Program-made: the position numbers and the translations under genes
The notes under the pieces: generated by a model
Told to the model about the DNA's origin: nothing
What the model saw: the letters and a program-made list of their open reading frames with translations, nothing else
Databases searched by the model: none
Part shown: in pieces, positions 9,592-15,077 of the stretch
How positions within the stretch are numbered: the first letter of the stretch is position 1
How the letters are laid out: each line of letters starts with the position of its first letter
Source of the DNA: Photorhabdus heterorhabditis
Lineage (GTDB): Bacteria > Pseudomonadota > Gammaproteobacteria > Enterobacterales > Enterobacteriaceae
Direction of reading: 5' to 3'
NCBI RefSeq assembly: GCF_018448905.1
Contig: NZ_RCWA01000025.1
Coordinates: forward strand, 1-64,000
DNA length: 64,000 nucleotides

Positions 9592-10506
9592 TTATGCCGC
9601 CCTTACAACGTAGTTAAATGCGATATTACGGGGCCTATTTTCGTGAGCAGTTGGGACTTGTCTTGATGCATCAATGTCAAAAAATGTAAGATCAGTACTA
9701 CTACCGCCATTTGCTGAACGTGTTTCTCGCGTACCATATCGCAACGATGCCATGACCCCATTCACGATAGGCGTCTGGGGAAGGCCAGCCATCTGAGCAT
9801 GTACAGCTTGAGTTGTCCCTGTAATATTTCTGATTGCATCTCCCTGCCAAGACAAAAGCCCACGACCACTATCAACGCCTCGATTATCATCCCATCCGCG
9901 GATAAATTCTCCTCTTAAATCAGGTAATCTACCGCTAGGATAAGCTTCCGCCAACTTCGGATATTGTAATTTATTAAAAGGTGAACCATTACAAATGAAA
10001 TAACCGATAGGTGGATAGGACAACGGCCACGGAATAGGGGAACCAGCAGGAATTTCACTGGTAGATTTAATCCGGTTATCTATCTCTTCACGGGGATAAG
10101 TATACTCACGTAATGAATTTATTTCTTTCTGAACGAGCTGTTGCGTCACTGCCAATGTGTCACTATTACCCATCACATTTGTCAGCTGAACAACACCTTT
10201 TTGGGTTAATGAAGCACTGGGAATATCTGTTGTAATTTTTTGTTCTAATGCTTTATTTAATTGAGTGGTCAGATTGGCTATATTTCCATCATCAATAACA
10301 TCATTGCCAGATCGTGTCGCGATAAAATCAGCGACGACAGAGGATATGGTTGATGACTGACGTAACACCTTATTTAACAAGTGTGTGGAAATATTATCTG
10401 GAGGAAATCCAGTCTGCAAGCTCTGGTTTCCTTCATATTTTTCTTGACTGACTACATTCGCATTATCACTAATAGAAAAAGCCTTAAAATCATTTTTAGA
10501 ACTCAT
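9592..10506 (-). CDS. Phage tail-fibre / tail collar domain protein
   Basis: A 304-aa tail-fibre-like protein. The start is the ATG at 10506 with AAGGAG 5 nt upstream. A GTG two codons earlier overlaps the ribosome site and is unlikely. The N-terminal 140 residues (NHLL-like segment NKVLRQSSTISSVVADFIAT, then ASLTQKGVVQLTN) match the attachment region of short phage tail fibres. From about residue 155, PIPWPLSYPPIGYFICNG and GRLPDLRGEFIRGWD are the tail-collar (PF07484) signature. No other tail genes adjoin it, so it is an orphan. A paralogue at 23720 shares the N-terminal region and about 140 bp of leader. A terminator follows. Confidence 0.88.
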   Translation of the reverse strand: MSSKNDFKAFSISDNANVVSQEKYEGNQSLQTGFPPDNISTHLLNKVLRQSSTISSVVADFIATRSGNDVIDDGNIANLTTQLNKALEQKITTDIPSASLTQKGVVQLTNVMGNSDTLAVTQQLVQKEINSLREYTYPREEIDNRIKSTSEIPAGSPIPWPLSYPPIGYFICNGSPFNKLQYPKLAEAYPSGRLPDLRGEFIRGWDDNRGVDSGRGLLSWQGDAIRNITGTTQAVHAQMAGLPQTPIVNGVMASLRYGTRETRSANGGSSTDLTFFDIDASRQVPTAHENRPRNIAFNYVVRAA

Positions 10507-10667
10507 ATACACTCCTTAAATTAAATAATATTCTTTTATAATCAACACATTAAAAGATTGAAAAAAAACTTCAATAATTCATATCAATCACAGTCTAGTT
10601 CAGAAAAATAACAATAGAGTGTTCTTATTACTTATAAGGTTAACCGTTTTTGTATCATTGGCAGTAA

Positions 10668-11439: not shown

Positions 11440-12291
11440 ATGGAAGACCCGGTAATCCTTCTGGAAAAAATCCTGACTTTTGCCCATAACGATCCCCGTA
11501 TTGATACAGTTATCCAAACAGGTTCCCGTGCCAGAAATGCACGTGTAGATAAATTCTCAGATCTAGATATAGAACTGATTGGTTCAGGAACAGATGAATT
11601 AATAGGCAACGATTTATGGTTTAAGCAGTTGGGTGATGTTATGGTTGCATTGCATCTGGCTAATGAAAAAGAGGATGAACCAGATTGGCCAACTTGTCTG
11701 GTCGTTTTTAACGGCGGTCGTAAGGTGGATTTCACACTGGCAAGTGTTAAACGCCTGAAAGATATGAAACAAAGAGGCTTGGATGAACTTTATCAACGCG
11801 GCTATAAGATCCTCCTTGATAAGACTGGCCTTACAAACGGACTTCCTGAAATCACTCACCAATTGACTAAATCACATATTCCATCATCAACAGAGTTTAA
11901 TGAAAACCTGCACGAGTTCTGGTTCGAGGCAACACAAGTGCCTGTTTATATCACTCGTGGTGATTTATGGCCTGCAAGAATGAGGGATAATGAGATGAAA
12001 GACTTATTGCTGGCAATGATGGAGTGGTACGTCTCGATAAAAAGTGATGGAAAGACGGACGTCTGGTACAACGGCCATCATTTGCATGAATGGCTGCCTG
12101 AGAAGTTCAGCAAACATATTCAAGGGATTTTTAGCAGTTATGGCAAAGAAGAAGCGATACGAGCATTGCTGGAAACCACAGAGCTTTATACGGAGATTTC
12201 TGCTGAAGTGGCAGAAATGAAGGGGTTTGAGTTCGATAGTGAGCTACCCAGTAAAGTCAGGAAGCATATTATGCAAGTTTGTTATGGTTAA
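11440..12291 (+). CDS. Aminoglycoside 6-adenylyltransferase-like protein (AadK/ANT(6) family)
   Basis: A 283-aa protein of the streptomycin adenylyltransferase family (PF04439), which transfers AMP to the 6-hydroxyl of streptomycin. The nucleotidyltransferase motif G-S-R at 28-30 followed by FSDLDIELI at 39-47 supplies the metal-binding D-x-D. PTCLVVFNGGRKVDFTLA contains the third acidic position. The C-terminal helical half has MKDLLLAMMEWYVSIKSDGK and WYNGHHLHEWL, typical of the family. AGGAA precedes the ATG. The length matches AadK proteins, so it looks intact. It stands alone in an accessory segment. The substrate is not proved by the sequence; family members also occur in sensitive environmental strains. 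Confidence 0.85.
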   Translation: MEDPVILLEKILTFAHNDPRIDTVIQTGSRARNARVDKFSDLDIELIGSGTDELIGNDLWFKQLGDVMVALHLANEKEDEPDWPTCLVVFNGGRKVDFTLASVKRLKDMKQRGLDELYQRGYKILLDKTGLTNGLPEITHQLTKSHIPSSTEFNENLHEFWFEATQVPVYITRGDLWPARMRDNEMKDLLLAMMEWYVSIKSDGKTDVWYNGHHLHEWLPEKFSKHIQGIFSSYGKEEAIRALLETTELYTEISAEVAEMKGFEFDSELPSKVRKHIMQVCYG

Positions 12292-12452
12292 TCTCATACA
12301 GTTACGATCAAGGAAGTAGTTATTCAGTGGAACGATGAAGAGAATACAGAACAAAGTGACCCGGTACCACCCATCGAAATGTCAGTCAGTATCGCTTCGC
12401 CCTTATATGGACTCCCCTGAACGATCAACAGATTTTACACGGGTATAGATGG

Positions 12453-12554
12453 CCTTCGGGCCAACGCTGTCGCGTTGTTGTCTCGCTTCGCTCGGCTCGA
12501 ACCTGCAACCCATTGATTAAAAGTCAACGGCTCTACCGACTGAGCTAACGACCC
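12453..12554 (-). pseudogene. tRNA-Lys-like unit, truncated inside its insert
   Basis: The 5' part up to the T loop is present with intact acceptor 5' strand, D arm and TTT anticodon arm. The insert stops near its second hairpin (CCTTCGGGCC on the plus strand), and the acceptor 3' strand and CCA are missing. Beyond the break the sequence is unrelated. It marks the distal end of the array. Confidence 0.75.
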
Positions 12555-12590
12555 ATCCAAGGGAATTTGTTTTTGACCGAAGCTTCAAGA

Positions 12591-12730
12591 TGGTGGGTCG
12601 TGCAGGATGACTCGGCCTACGGCCTCGCCCTTCGGGCCAACGCTGTCGCGTTGTTGTCTCGCTTCGCTCGGCTCGAACCTGCAACCCATTGATTAAAAGT
12701 CAACGGCTCTACCGACTGAGCTAACGACCC
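12591..12730 (-). pseudogene. tRNA-Lys-like unit with a 64-nt T-loop insert (unit 1)
   Basis: Without the insert at 12609-12672 this would be a 76-nt tRNA-Lys with a complete acceptor stem, D arm, TTT anticodon arm and encoded CCA. It differs from the canonical copies by GCCG for GCAG before the anticodon stem and by GGGTTGC at the variable loop/T stem. The insert interrupts the T loop between TTCGA and ATCC. Whether the RNA is processed is unknown. Confidence 0.75.
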
Positions 12731-12766
12731 ATCCAAGGGAATTTGTTTTTGACCGAAGCTTCAAGA

Positions 12767-12906
12767 TGGTGGGTCGTGCAGGATGACTCGGCCTACGGCC
12801 TCGCCCTTCGGGCCAACGCTGTCGCGTTGTTGTCTCGCTTCGCTCGGCTCGAACCTGCAACCCATTGATTAAAAGTCAACGGCTCTACCGACTGAGCTAA
12901 CGACCC
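12767..12906 (-). pseudogene. tRNA-Lys-like unit with a 64-nt T-loop insert (unit 2)
   Basis: Matches unit 1 closely, including the insert at 12785-12848, the intact acceptor and D stems and the GGGTTGC T-stem change. The near identity of units 1 and 2 over 176 bp points to recent duplication or gene conversion. Confidence 0.75.
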
Positions 12907-12942
12907 ATCCAAGGGAATTTGTTTTTGACCGAAGCTTCAAGA

Positions 12943-13082
12943 TGGTGGGTCGTGCAGGATGACTCGGCCTACGGCCTCGCCCTTCGGGCCAACGCTGTTG
13001 CGTTGTTGTCTCGCTTCGCTCGGCTCGAACCTGCGACCCATTGATTAAAAGTCAACGGCTTTGCCGACTGCGCTAATGACCT
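12943..13082 (-). pseudogene. tRNA-Lys-like unit with a 64-nt T-loop insert (unit 3)
   Basis: Has the same insert, but the 5' half has decayed. The acceptor 5' strand reads AGGTCAT instead of GGGTCGT, creating two A-C mismatches with the 3' strand. The D arm reads GCGCAGTCGGCAAAGC, which breaks D-stem pairs. The T stem keeps GGGTCGC. It is unlikely to be a working tRNA. Confidence 0.75.
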
Positions 13083-13117
13083 ATTCAGGGAATTTGTTTT
13101 TGAATGAAGCTTCAAGA

Positions 13118-13257
13118 TGGTGGGTCGTGCAGGATGACTCGGCCTACGGCCTCGCCCTTCGGGCCAACGCTGTTGCGTTGTTGTCTCGCTTCGCTCGGCT
13201 CGAACCTGCGACCCATTGATTAAAAGTCAACGGCTTTGCCGACTGCGCTAATGACCT
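13118..13257 (-). pseudogene. tRNA-Lys-like unit with a 64-nt T-loop insert (unit 4)
   Basis: Matches unit 3 closely, with the same acceptor and D-arm defects, the same insert and the same 35-nt spacer containing TTTGAATGAAGC rather than TTTGACCGAAGC. Confidence 0.75.
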
Positions 13258-13292
13258 ATTCAGGGAATTTGTTTTTGAATGAAGCTTCAAGA

Positions 13293-13432
13293 TGGTGGGT
13301 CGTGCAGGATGACTCGGCCTACGGCCTCGCCCTTCGGGCCAAAGCTGTCGCGTTGTTGTCTCGCTTCGCTCGGCTCGAACCTGCGACCCATTGATTAAAA
13401 GTCAACGGCTTTGCCGACTGCGCTAATGACCT
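13293..13432 (-). pseudogene. tRNA-Lys-like unit with a 64-nt T-loop insert (unit 5)
   Basis: Same defects as units 3 and 4. Its insert has one change, AAAGCTGTCGCG for AACGCTGTCGCG on the plus strand, which weakens one pair of the AACGC/GCGTT hairpin. It is the insert-bearing unit nearest the canonical genes. Confidence 0.75.
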
Positions 13433-13467
13433 ATTCAGGGAATTTGTTTTTGAATGAAGCTTCAAGA

Positions 13468-13543
13468 TGGTGGGTCGTGCAGGATTCGAACCTGCGACCA
13501 ATTGATTAAAAGTCAACTGCTCTACCGACTGAGCTAACGACCC
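13468..13543 (-). tRNA. tRNA-Lys (TTT)
   Basis: On the minus strand it starts GGGTCGTTAGCTCAGTCGGT, has the anticodon loop CTTTTAA with anticodon TTT, a T loop with GGTTCGAATCC and an encoded CCA end. All four stems pair. It is the second gene of the cluster, 36 nt downstream of the first copy, and has the same body. Confidence 0.97.
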
Positions 13544-13579
13544 ATCCAAGGGAATTTGTTTTTGACCGAAGCTTTAAGA

Positions 13580-13655
13580 TGGTGGGTCGTGCAGGATTCG
13601 AACCTGCGACCAATTGATTAAAAGTCAACTGCTCTACCGACTGAGCTAACGACCC
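13580..13655 (-). tRNA. tRNA-Lys (TTT)
   Basis: First gene of the tRNA-Lys cluster and apparently identical to the copy at 13468-13543. The acceptor GGGTCGT pairs with ACGACCC, the anticodon is TTT and CCA is encoded. It lies just downstream of a tRNA-type promoter and 147 bp from the end of cpoB, the same neighbourhood as E. coli lysT. Confidence 0.97.
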
Positions 13656-13672
13656 ATCTTGTGACTTCTCTC

Positions 13673-13714
13673 GGCAACGGCGGCATATATTACTGATTTT
13701 TCAGAACAACGCAA
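13673..13714 (-). promoter_or_regulatory. Promoter of the tRNA-Lys cluster
   Basis: Read on the minus strand: TTGCGT (13709-13714), 16-nt spacer, TAATAT (13687-13692), then the GC-rich stretch GCCGCCGTTGCC at the start point. A GC-rich discriminator is typical of stringently controlled tRNA promoters. Confidence 0.55.
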
Positions 13715-13802
13715 CGGTTATTTTTTCAAATTACGTTTAAATGCTTACCAAGCACTCAATCAACCCCGAAAACGTGTTAATACGCCCTTCCGGGGCCAAT
13801 AA

Positions 13803-14570
13803 TTACAGCGTAGAAAGCTTTTTTTCAGCCAGTTTAGCTGCGTTCGAACCAGGATATTGCTTCATAACCTGCTGGTAAACAGATCTCGCTTTATCCTTCT
13901 GACCCTTGTCCTGCATGATTAAACCAACTTTGTAAAGCGATTCACCACTCTTCTGTGACTTCGGGTACTCTTTTACTACCGTAGCAAAGTAGTAAGCAGC
14001 TTCGTCTTTCTTACCCTTGTTATAGTGAAGTTGTCCTAACCAGTAGTTAGCATTAGGTATATAACTCGACTTCGGGTAATTCTTTACAAAACTCTGAAAA
14101 GAAATAATCGCTTTATCATATTCTTTGGTATTCACTGCCAAGTGAACAGCTGCATCATAATCGCCTTTCTCGCTGCCAGTGCTGACAGTTGAAGACGCTC
14201 GATTGCCACTATTACTTGCAGTTGGAGAAGGCGGGGCCGCCGTAGGCTTACTGTCTGAGGAACCTGTAGCACCTTCCAGTTGCTGATAAATGTCTTTCTG
14301 CCGCTCTATCACTTGATTAAGCTGATACTGGTTCTCCTGTATCTGACCACGGAGCATGTCAATATCACGCTGAGAATCGGCGAGTTGTTGTTGAAGCTGA
14401 GTTAACAGTTGGCTGTGAGCGTTGGAAATACGCTCTAATTGGGTAAGGCGCTCATCGGTAGAACCTGAGCCGACATTACTGATTGGCGCTTGGGCAATAG
14501 CGGCCCAAGGAACCGCTACGCCAACCAGTAACGACAGACCCAAAAAATGATGTCTGAAGTTACTGTTCAT
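13803..14570 (-). CDS. cpoB: Cell division coordinator CpoB (YbgF)
   Basis: A 255-aa periplasmic protein. An N-terminal signal peptide (HHFLGLSLLVGVAVPWAAIA, cleavage after AQA) is followed by a trimerising coiled coil at about residues 35-95, a Ser/Pro-rich linker and TPR repeats from about residue 130 (YPKSSYIPNANYWLGQLHYN; YPKSQKSGESLYKVGLIMQD). CpoB binds TolA and PBP1B and couples peptidoglycan synthesis to outer-membrane constriction. It is the last gene of the tol-pal cluster, starting 9 nt after the pal stop. The tRNA-Lys cluster follows, as in E. coli. Confidence 0.96.
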   Translation of the reverse strand: MNSNFRHHFLGLSLLVGVAVPWAAIAQAPISNVGSGSTDERLTQLERISNAHSQLLTQLQQQLADSQRDIDMLRGQIQENQYQLNQVIERQKDIYQQLEGATGSSDSKPTAAPPSPTASNSGNRASSTVSTGSEKGDYDAAVHLAVNTKEYDKAIISFQSFVKNYPKSSYIPNANYWLGQLHYNKGKKDEAAYYFATVVKEYPKSQKSGESLYKVGLIMQDKGQKDKARSVYQQVMKQYPGSNAAKLAEKKLSTL

Positions 14571-14579
14571 GAACTACTC

Positions 14580-15077
14580 TTAATATGCCAGTACTGCGCG
14601 ACGGTTTTTCGCATAAGCCGTTTCGTCATGACCCAGTACAGCAGGTTTTTCTTTACCGTAAGAGACGATAGAGATTTGCTCACCGGAAACACCTTTGCCT
14701 TGCAGGTACATTTTCACTGCATTAGCACGGCGTTCACCTAATGCGATGTTGTACTCAGGAGTACCACGTTCGTCAGCATGACCTTCTACAACAACTTTAT
14801 AAGATGGGTTGCTGCGCAGGAATGCTGCGTGAGCGTCTAACAGCTGAGAAAAATCTGAGCTGATGTCGTATTTGTCAAAACCAAAATATACGATGTTGTT
14901 GTTTTGCAGCTCTTGCATTTGCTGACGAGCTAATTCCTCTGCTGACAGACCCGCATTAGTTTCGTTAACAGTGCCTACACCAGTCTGATCGTTATCAGCA
15001 TTTTTGTTAGAACTACACGCTGCTACAGCCATAACTGGTAAAGCTAACATCAGCCCTTTTAGCACTTTGTTCAGTTG
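14580..15077 (-). CDS. pal: Peptidoglycan-associated lipoprotein Pal
   Basis: A 165-aa outer-membrane lipoprotein. I take the ATG at 15077 ([12 protein letters not shown]), which matches the enterobacterial N-terminus; an in-frame ATG ten codons upstream is less likely. The lipobox ends at Cys22 (MAVAAC). The C-terminal OmpA-like domain contains [10 protein letters not shown] and [20 protein letters not shown], which bind diaminopimelate in peptidoglycan. Pal anchors the outer membrane and interacts with TolB and TolA during division. It sits between tolB and cpoB in the expected order. Confidence 0.97.

What the first reader, a model, noticed from the sequence alone, without database searches (positions are those of the whole stretch)
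12453..13432. Tandem tRNA-Lys-like units carrying an identical structured insert in the T loop
Five complete units and one truncated unit look like tRNA-Lys genes interrupted at the same place, between TTCGA and ATCC of the T loop, by 64 nt. On the RNA strand the insert can form tiny hairpins: AACGC-GACA-GCGTT, GCCC-GAA-GGGC and GGCC-GTA-GGCC. The outer tRNA body, TTT anticodon and encoded CCA are kept in units 1 and 2. Known tRNA introns at this site occur in archaea, not enterobacteria. Possibilities are a processed or permuted tRNA, a small-RNA array using tRNA ends for maturation, or an insertion element amplified with its host tRNA.
Basis: partly seen in the sequence, partly recalled or inferred. 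Interest (0 to 1): 0.85.

Follow-up and report, generated by a model that had tools for sequence, protein, structure and literature searches.

The report
Lysine-tRNA repeats carrying RtT elements
A bacterial lysine-tRNA gene cluster is followed by a tandem array in which a long-known small RNA element (RtT, also called a tRNA-linked repeat) sits inside the T loop of copied tRNA genes; the element is known, but its fusion with a whole tRNA body looks like a new variant.

Summary
On the minus strand, after cpoB and two intact tRNA-Lys genes, lie five complete units and one truncated unit, each a tRNA-Lys body cut after T-loop position 58 by a 64-nt core. The reading as an archaea-like intron or new element does not hold: every unit matches Rfam RF00391, RtT, the family called tRNA-linked repeats (TLR) in E. 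coli and first described in 1978. The unusual part is the form. In the E. coli loci read here the element keeps only the T-arm half and 3' tail of its tRNA. At the Lys and Tyr loci of Photorhabdus it often carries the whole tRNA body, in Lys arrays of up to 14 units. All 13 held genomes of the genus have such Lys units (11) or remnants (2) at this locus. Cores stay with their host tRNA type, which argues against a free mobile element; three of the four core hairpins covary clearly. Half of the Lys bodies (35 of 70) cannot form a full acceptor stem, so they are unlikely to be intron-bearing tRNA genes. Best model: a tRNA copy was joined to an existing TLR at the shared T-arm half, then amplified in tandem and read through as a tRNA-operon trailer. 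Function is unknown; no expression data were available.

The parts
13580..13655 (-). intact tRNA-Lys(TTT), first of the operon
   Evidence: ARAGORN; Rfam tRNA 79.2 bits
13468..13543 (-). intact tRNA-Lys(TTT), second of the operon
   Evidence: ARAGORN; Rfam tRNA 79.2 bits
13293..13432 (-). hybrid unit 1: tRNA-Lys-like body 13375-13432, RtT core 13311-13374, 3' tail with CCA 13293-13310; acceptor and D stems broken
   Evidence: same body
13118..13257 (-). hybrid unit 2: body 13200-13257, core 13136-13199, tail 13118-13135; acceptor and D stems broken
12943..13082 (-). hybrid unit 3: body 13025-13082, core 12961-13024, tail 12943-12960; acceptor and D stems broken
12767..12906 (-). hybrid unit 4: body 12849-12906, core 12785-12848, tail 12767-12784; all tRNA stems can pair
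12591..12730 (-). hybrid unit 5: body 12673-12730, core 12609-12672, tail 12591-12608; all tRNA stems can pair
12453..12554 (-). truncated unit 6: body 12497-12554 and the first 44 nt of the core (12453-12496); tail missing
13803..14570 (-). cpoB (ybgF) gene upstream of the tRNA operon, same strand; the locus matches the cpoB-lysT-nadA locus of E. coli at its cpoB side
   Evidence: ORF; CpoB_ybgF thermometer at 14541-14679; E. coli order; gene name from those two calls and the translation

Best explanation
The array is a tandem set of RtT / tRNA-linked repeats (TLR) in hybrid form. An ordinary TLR consists of the 5' half of the host tRNA's T arm, a core of up to four small hairpins and the host tRNA's last 18 nt (positions 59-76, CCA included), and lies just downstream of the tRNA. 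In an ancestor of Photorhabdus a whole tRNA-Lys copy was joined to such a TLR at the T-arm half that both share (inferred: deletion or crossover between these short direct repeats, or gene conversion of the core into the tRNA copy). The resulting unit, spacer + tRNA body + core + tail, then multiplied and shrank by unequal recombination between units (inferred from copy-number differences between species). The array is presumably read through from the tRNA-Lys promoter; the tail, being the tRNA's own 3' end, would guide 3' processing and so release RtT-like RNAs (inferred from E. coli). The tRNA bodies are passengers that decay, acceptor 5' strand first, while the core keeps its hairpins. Shown here: family membership, anatomy, locus, conservation, locus-bound cores, covariation. 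Inferred: joining event, transcription, processing. Biological role: not known; the likeliest is that of other TLR RNAs, short-lived trailer RNAs that reflect tRNA transcription, perhaps binding a regulator.
For: All six units score above the RF00391 cut-off (54.4-84.6 bits, cut-off 45); the Rfam model itself pairs the T-stem halves across the core. E. coli lysT and proK TLRs have T-arm half | core | 18-nt tail without a tRNA body. At this locus 11 of 13 held genomes of the genus have complete hybrid units (1-14 each), G430 a truncated one and G424 a remnant. In the same genus the tRNA-Ser TLRs fetched have no body, and Tyr TLRs without a body occur in three genomes while seven loci have Tyr hybrids. 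The Tyr cores with and without body are 92-100% alike, Lys-Tyr cores 65-76%: the core in a hybrid is that locus's own TLR core. The nearest core in another genome has the same host tRNA in 85 of 95 cases (shuffles within genomes: mean 39.3, highest of 200 = 56). Unit length equals tRNA repeat length plus 64. Hairpins: 10 of 19 pairs change on both sides, 41 cells, 0 of 500 shuffles reach either. Tails: acceptor 5' strand is the most divergent part of 58 distinct units (0.227), core hairpin 1 the least (0.002), tail 0.019. A published E. coli relative is processed near a repeated 3' end, and the authors propose RNase E recognition of it (PMC8144298 discussion).
Against: No expression data for Photorhabdus; no promoter- or terminator-like site was found at 12280-13860 (the strict scan also missed any promoter of the intact tRNAs, so it says little). 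The minimum-energy fold of a unit shows hairpins 2-4 but not the tRNA cloverleaf nor hairpin 1. 'Further standard pair types' do not exceed shuffles (14 against mean 14.5). G-T pairs are not commoner than A-C mismatches in the core helices (8 against 10 cells, corrected by hand, pair 2-17 left out), so nothing shows that RNA rather than DNA hairpins are selected. A first-base marker of the T-arm half favours the joining model for Tyr but not cleanly for Lys. Outside Photorhabdus the closest cores are sometimes of another tRNA type (Tyr of G097 0.83, Pro of G018 0.81 for Lys), so exchange between loci over longer times is not excluded.
Confidence: 0.66

Rival explanations
1. Neutral or selfish tandem repeat: the units have no function. 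Copies multiply by recombination between repeated tRNA pieces, and the hairpins stay perfect because template switching at quasi-palindromes keeps correcting them at the DNA level (the mutation process is recalled, not looked up).
For: Copy number at this locus runs from 0 complete units to 14 among 13 genomes; two genomes kept only remnants; G-T is not in excess over A-C (corrected); bodies decay.
Against: Hairpin 1 (tandem G-A, GNA loop) is nearly invariant: 1 variable column of 17 in 58 distinct units and G-A/G-A in 56 of 57 cores. The family is widespread: matches at E<=0.001 in 28 of 148 genomes of the order and 51 of 274 of the class sample, 22 and 19 over the cut-off.
Confidence: 0.2
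2. tRNA-scaffolded small RNA: units with intact stems are cut by RNase P and 3' enzymes like a tRNA, giving an RNA with a tRNA-shaped frame, CCA end and the hairpin core in place of the T loop; it may even be bound by tRNA enzymes.
For: 26 of 70 bodies can form all four stems, 68 of 70 keep anticodon TTT and 68 of 70 end in CCA; units 4 and 5 of the window are of this kind.
Against: 35 of 70 have a broken acceptor stem, and it is the most divergent part; the predicted fold is not a cloverleaf.
Confidence: 0.1
3. tRNA intron: the core is removed from the T loop to give functional tRNA-Lys.
For: Insertion point and clean joining of the exons; six of 70 bodies are identical to the intact tRNA.
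Against: Four intact tRNA-Lys genes exist in the genome; half of the bodies lack a paired acceptor stem; the same core and tail occur elsewhere without any tRNA body; bacteria are not known to have the archaeal splicing enzyme (recalled).
Confidence: 0.02
4. A mobile element that inserts its core into T loops at a fixed site.
For: The same site in tRNAs of several types and many genera.
Against: Cores follow the host tRNA type, not the genome (85 of 95); no core copy outside tRNA operons in the own genome apart from a 15-nt chance-level match; no gene within the unit.
Confidence: 0.02

Closest known systems
RtT RNA (Rfam RF00391), released from the tyrT operon of E. coli
   Same: Same family by covariance model, all six units above cut-off; T-stem halves, hairpins, GA-rich links, 18-nt tRNA tail.
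   Different: Whole tRNA-Lys body in front of the core instead of the short block with an inverted T-arm copy seen in E. coli; longer arrays.
tRNA-linked repeats (TLR) of E. coli K-12 (Egan and Landy 1978; Rudd 1999, both as cited in PMC8144298)
   Same: Downstream of tRNA genes, tandem, 18-19 bp of the 3' end equal to the upstream tRNA's 3' end.
   Different: 22 TLRs at ten loci there, one to five per locus; here 5 plus a fragment, up to 14 in a relative, with tRNA bodies.
RrA, RrB, RrF sRNAs of E. coli rRNA operons
   Same: TLR family; hairpin modules; repeated 3' end; co-transcribed trailer.
   Different: 5S rather than tRNA host; GGA motifs for CsrA there, while only 2 of 56 Lys-type cores have GGA in a hairpin loop.
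Arrc20 and Arrc21 of Actinobacillus pleuropneumoniae
   Same: RtT-family RNAs beside tRNA genes, seen on Northern blots (PMC4986893, passages).
   Different: Single elements described there as upstream of tRNA-Asn and tRNA-Lys genes; no tRNA-body hybrids mentioned in the passages seen.

Membership tests
RtT / TLR (RF00391) | Score above the curated cut-off of the covariance model | tested here: met
   Six units, 54.4-84.6 bits, cut-off 45
RtT / TLR (RF00391) | 18-19 nt of the 3' end identical to the 3' end of the adjacent tRNA | tested here: met
   Five complete units have the exact 18-nt tail of tRNA-Lys; the truncated one has lost it
RtT / TLR (RF00391) | Located downstream of a tRNA or rRNA gene in the same operon | tested here: met
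   Same strand, directly after two tRNA-Lys genes; co-transcription itself not tested
RtT / TLR (RF00391) | Conserved hairpins with covariation | tested here: met
   57 distinct Lys cores, 10 of 19 pairs with changes on both sides, 0 of 500 shuffles
RtT / TLR (RF00391) | Released as a stable or processed RNA | not testable with these tools
   No expression data held
Bacterial or archaeal tRNA intron | Exons conserved as a functional tRNA | tested here: not met
   Acceptor stem broken in 35 of 70 units, D stem in 24 of 70
Bacterial or archaeal tRNA intron | Splicing enzyme or self-splicing structure | not tested
   No enzyme search was run; the Rfam scan of the window found no intron family
T-loop-targeting mobile element | Copies move between loci independent of host tRNA type | tested here: not met
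   Nearest core has the same tRNA type in 85 of 95; longer-term exchange not excluded
CsrA-binding sponge RNA | GGA motifs in hairpin loops | tested here: not met
   GGA in a loop in 2 of 56 Lys cores, 19 of 110 cores overall; binding itself not testable

The most novel reading that the evidence does not exclude
In Photorhabdus the T loop of a duplicated tRNA gene serves as a cargo site: intact-stem hybrid units mature like tRNAs and yield tRNA-framed, CCA-ended small RNAs whose multi-hairpin core replaces the T loop, made in proportion to tRNA-Lys transcription and to array length.
Probability: 0.1. Interest if true: 0.72.

Novelty: new variant of a known kind. Interest (0 to 1): 0.36.

Why it matters
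TLRs have been known since 1978 without an agreed function (PMC8144298). The Photorhabdus hybrids show at which point of the tRNA the element is joined (T loop 58/59), give a natural series of units with intact and broken acceptor stems, and vary in number between close species. That makes two questions testable: how TLRs arise from tRNA genes, and whether tRNA-processing enzymes shape their RNAs. Annotation also gains: ARAGORN calls three of the units in this window as tRNA-Lys genes, which they probably are not.

Tried and rejected
Intron, mobile insertion and assembly artefact were considered and set aside for the reasons in the rivals. A test of RNA against DNA hairpins by G-T versus A-C cells gave no signal (in one search my script counted letter pairs written A-C twice, so its printed 'AC' total of 19 is wrong and the true number is 10). 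A CsrA sponge reading, suggested by E. coli RrB, is not carried by the Lys cores. The scan for promoters and terminators found nothing and is not informative. 'The core always sits in a T arm' is not universal: of 179 distinct repeated tails, 161 had a T-arm half within 130 nt, and some of these were the half of the intact tRNA itself (for example L011 at 825 and L187); Arg-linked copies have no T-arm half. Unit counts (145) contain the same units fetched twice and were replaced (71 units, one gapped unit dropped from the pairing count).

Literature: PMC8144298 was read in its introduction, one results section and part 1 of 2 of the discussion; PMC4986893 and PMC7657543 only as passages; the 1991 paper on the tyrT RNA is not held. 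Searches found no paper on RtT or tandem tRNA-Lys repeats in Photorhabdus in this open-access library; subscription papers were not searchable, and Rudd 1999 was not seen.

Full report
What is there. The minus strand of 12453-13655 reads: tRNA-Lys, tRNA-Lys, then five complete units and one cut-off unit. Each unit is a tRNA-Lys body of 58 nt ending in TTCGA (position 58 of the T loop), a 64-nt core, and the last 18 nt of tRNA-Lys with CCA (positions 59-76). The repeat is 175-176 bp, the tRNA-Lys copies beside it repeat at 112 bp, and the difference is the core. The finding's coordinates and anatomy are right, with the small corrections given under the observation check.

What family it is. Rfam RF00391 (RtT) matches all six units above the curated score. 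The model's own structure pairs the two T-stem halves across the core. The E. coli literature calls the same things tRNA-linked repeats: 22 copies at ten loci in K-12, each ending in 18-19 bp identical to the upstream tRNA or rRNA, no agreed function, an earlier claim for the tyrT copy later withdrawn (PMC8144298 introduction). So the insert is not new, and the 18-nt tail described there is exactly tRNA positions 59-76.

Where it occurs. At E<=0.001 RF00391 is found in 28 of 148 genomes sampled from the order (22 over the cut-off), 51 of 274 from the class (19 over the cut-off) and 13 of 13 of the genus, 1-26 matches each. The first two searches scored only the best candidates per genome, so the numbers are lower bounds. 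A DNA pattern for the T-arm junction hit 44 stretches, 27 from Photorhabdus and 17 from Dickeya, Lonsdalea, Pectobacterium, Yersinia, Serratia, Brenneria, Oceanospirillales-type bacteria, an Aeromonadaceae bin and an Enterobacteriaceae bin.

What is unusual. In the E. coli loci read here the T-arm half is preceded by an inverted copy of itself and a terminator-like hairpin, not by a tRNA body. In nine of the 15 E. coli rows listed the query's two parts match in two pieces 217-226 bp apart end to end, that is, not as one contiguous unit. In Photorhabdus, Lys units carry the whole body at the cpoB locus in 11 of 13 genomes (1 to 14 units), G430 keeps a truncated hybrid and G424 a remnant (the remnant was read by eye). 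Tyr units carry the whole body in loci L205, L208, L210, L212, L214, L220 and L223, where they lie before the intact tRNA-Tyr, whereas the Tyr elements of L117, L184 and L219 lie behind it without a body. The Ser elements fetched have no body. Outside Photorhabdus I saw the hybrid form only in L080, an Enterobacteriaceae bin with two units; other rows with a 'body' outside the genus are overlaps with the intact tRNA just upstream.

Locus-bound cores. Among 95 distinct genome/tRNA/core combinations the nearest core in another genome belongs to the same tRNA type in 85; shuffling types within genomes gives a mean of 39.3 and at most 56 in 200. Within Photorhabdus, same-type cores average 0.91-0.96 identity, different types 0.58-0.72. 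This is against a core that jumps between tRNAs. Against full strictness: the closest outsiders to Photorhabdus Lys cores include a Tyr (0.83) and a Pro core (0.81), and those to its Tyr cores are E. coli Lys cores (0.77).

How the hybrids arose (inferred). The T-arm half is the only stretch shared by a tRNA gene and the 5' side of its TLR, and the tail the only one on the 3' side. A deletion or crossover between the two T-arm halves in a cell with a spare tRNA copy yields the hybrid in one step. For Tyr the first base of the T-arm half in five of six hybrid rows is the tRNA's own G, while the body-less Tyr elements have C or T; the sixth row (L065, first copy) has T. For Lys, 68 of 71 hybrids have G and three A, while body-less Lys elements have T in L052, L064, L072, L075 and L079 but G in L011, L041 and L071, so this marker does not decide for Lys. 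Clean insertion of the core into a tRNA copy by gene conversion would look the same.

State of the bodies. Of 71 Lys hybrid units from the fetched loci of the 13 genomes (not every second Lys operon was fetched), 70 align without gaps: 35 have a broken acceptor pair, 24 a broken D pair, 3 anticodon-stem, 7 T-stem; 26 can pair in all four; 6 are identical to the tRNA; 68 keep TTT and 68 CCA. Pairwise difference in 58 distinct units: acceptor 5' strand 0.227, variable loop 0.191, D arm 0.083, anticodon arm 0.032, core 0.070 (hairpin 1 0.002), tail 0.019. The bodies decay unevenly; short gene-conversion tracts from the intact tRNA could also produce that pattern.

Core structure. On a sequence-only alignment of 57 distinct Lys cores, 19 named pairs: 92.7% of cells pair, 10 pairs change on both sides, 41 cells do, covariation score 0.132 against 0.060 in shuffles, with 0 of 500 shuffles reaching any of these; the count of further pair types (14) does not exceed shuffles (14.5). 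Helix 1 is the weakest (81.8% of cells paired, pair 2-17 unpaired in 49 of 57), helices 2-4 are at 95.6-97.7%. The tandem G-A of hairpin 1 is kept in 56 of 57, a motif reported for RtT (PMC7657543 passage). G-T cells (8) do not outnumber A-C cells (10) outside pair 2-17 (corrected by hand), so the hairpins may be kept as RNA or as DNA.

How it probably works. The array has no recognisable promoter or terminator of its own (weak evidence), lies on the tRNA strand, and is most simply a trailer read from the tRNA-Lys promoter. For E. coli RrB, a TLR behind 5S rRNA, a processed transcript ends 3 nt past the repeated tail and the authors propose that the tail is a processing signal for RNase E; that RNA binds Hfq and CsrA in vitro, with modest phenotypes. 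Two RtT RNAs of Actinobacillus pleuropneumoniae are seen on Northern blots. I therefore expect RtT-like RNAs from this array, with the tail as the 3' signal. A CsrA role is not suggested by these cores, which mostly lack GGA loops (2 of 56 Lys cores; 19 of 110 overall). Whether any unit is cut by RNase P at its tRNA-like 5' end is open; the predicted folds of two units (z -2.9 and -2.2) are more stable than shuffles but are not cloverleaves.

Verdict. A known element in a new form: tRNA body and TLR fused in the T loop and amplified, Photorhabdus-wide at the Lys locus. The element's function is an old open question that these arrays may help to test.

Noticed in passing
window 11440-12291 (+): A 283-aa protein matching PF04439, streptomycin adenylyltransferase (E 1.9e-71), ends 161 bp from the truncated end of the array; a similar stretch lies in five other genomes of the genus (94-99%).
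   Followed up: partly
window 12399-12452: The sequence joined to the truncated unit recurs elsewhere in two genomes (98% and 90% over about 45 bp), so the array was probably cut by a small repeat or mobile-element remnant.
   Followed up: partly
window 9592-10512 (-): ORF with phage tail collar and tail fibre repeat domains, left of the array.
   Followed up: no
L080 1120-1560: Two Lys hybrid units in an Enterobacteriaceae metagenome bin outside Photorhabdus, with a different body and spacer: a second origin or an old shared one.
   Followed up: partly
L033, L038, L036, L095, L100, L104, L107: TLR cores behind Ser, Tyr and Gln tRNAs of other bacteria often have a long first hairpin with an AGGA or GGGA loop that resembles a CsrA site (seen by eye; 19 of 110 cores by script).
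   Followed up: partly
L165 1437-3020: The array of G420 alternates two unit types, as if pairs of units had been duplicated together.
   Followed up: no
L200, L196, L190: Arg-linked elements keep only the later hairpins and the 18-nt tail, without T-arm half or first hairpin.
   Followed up: no
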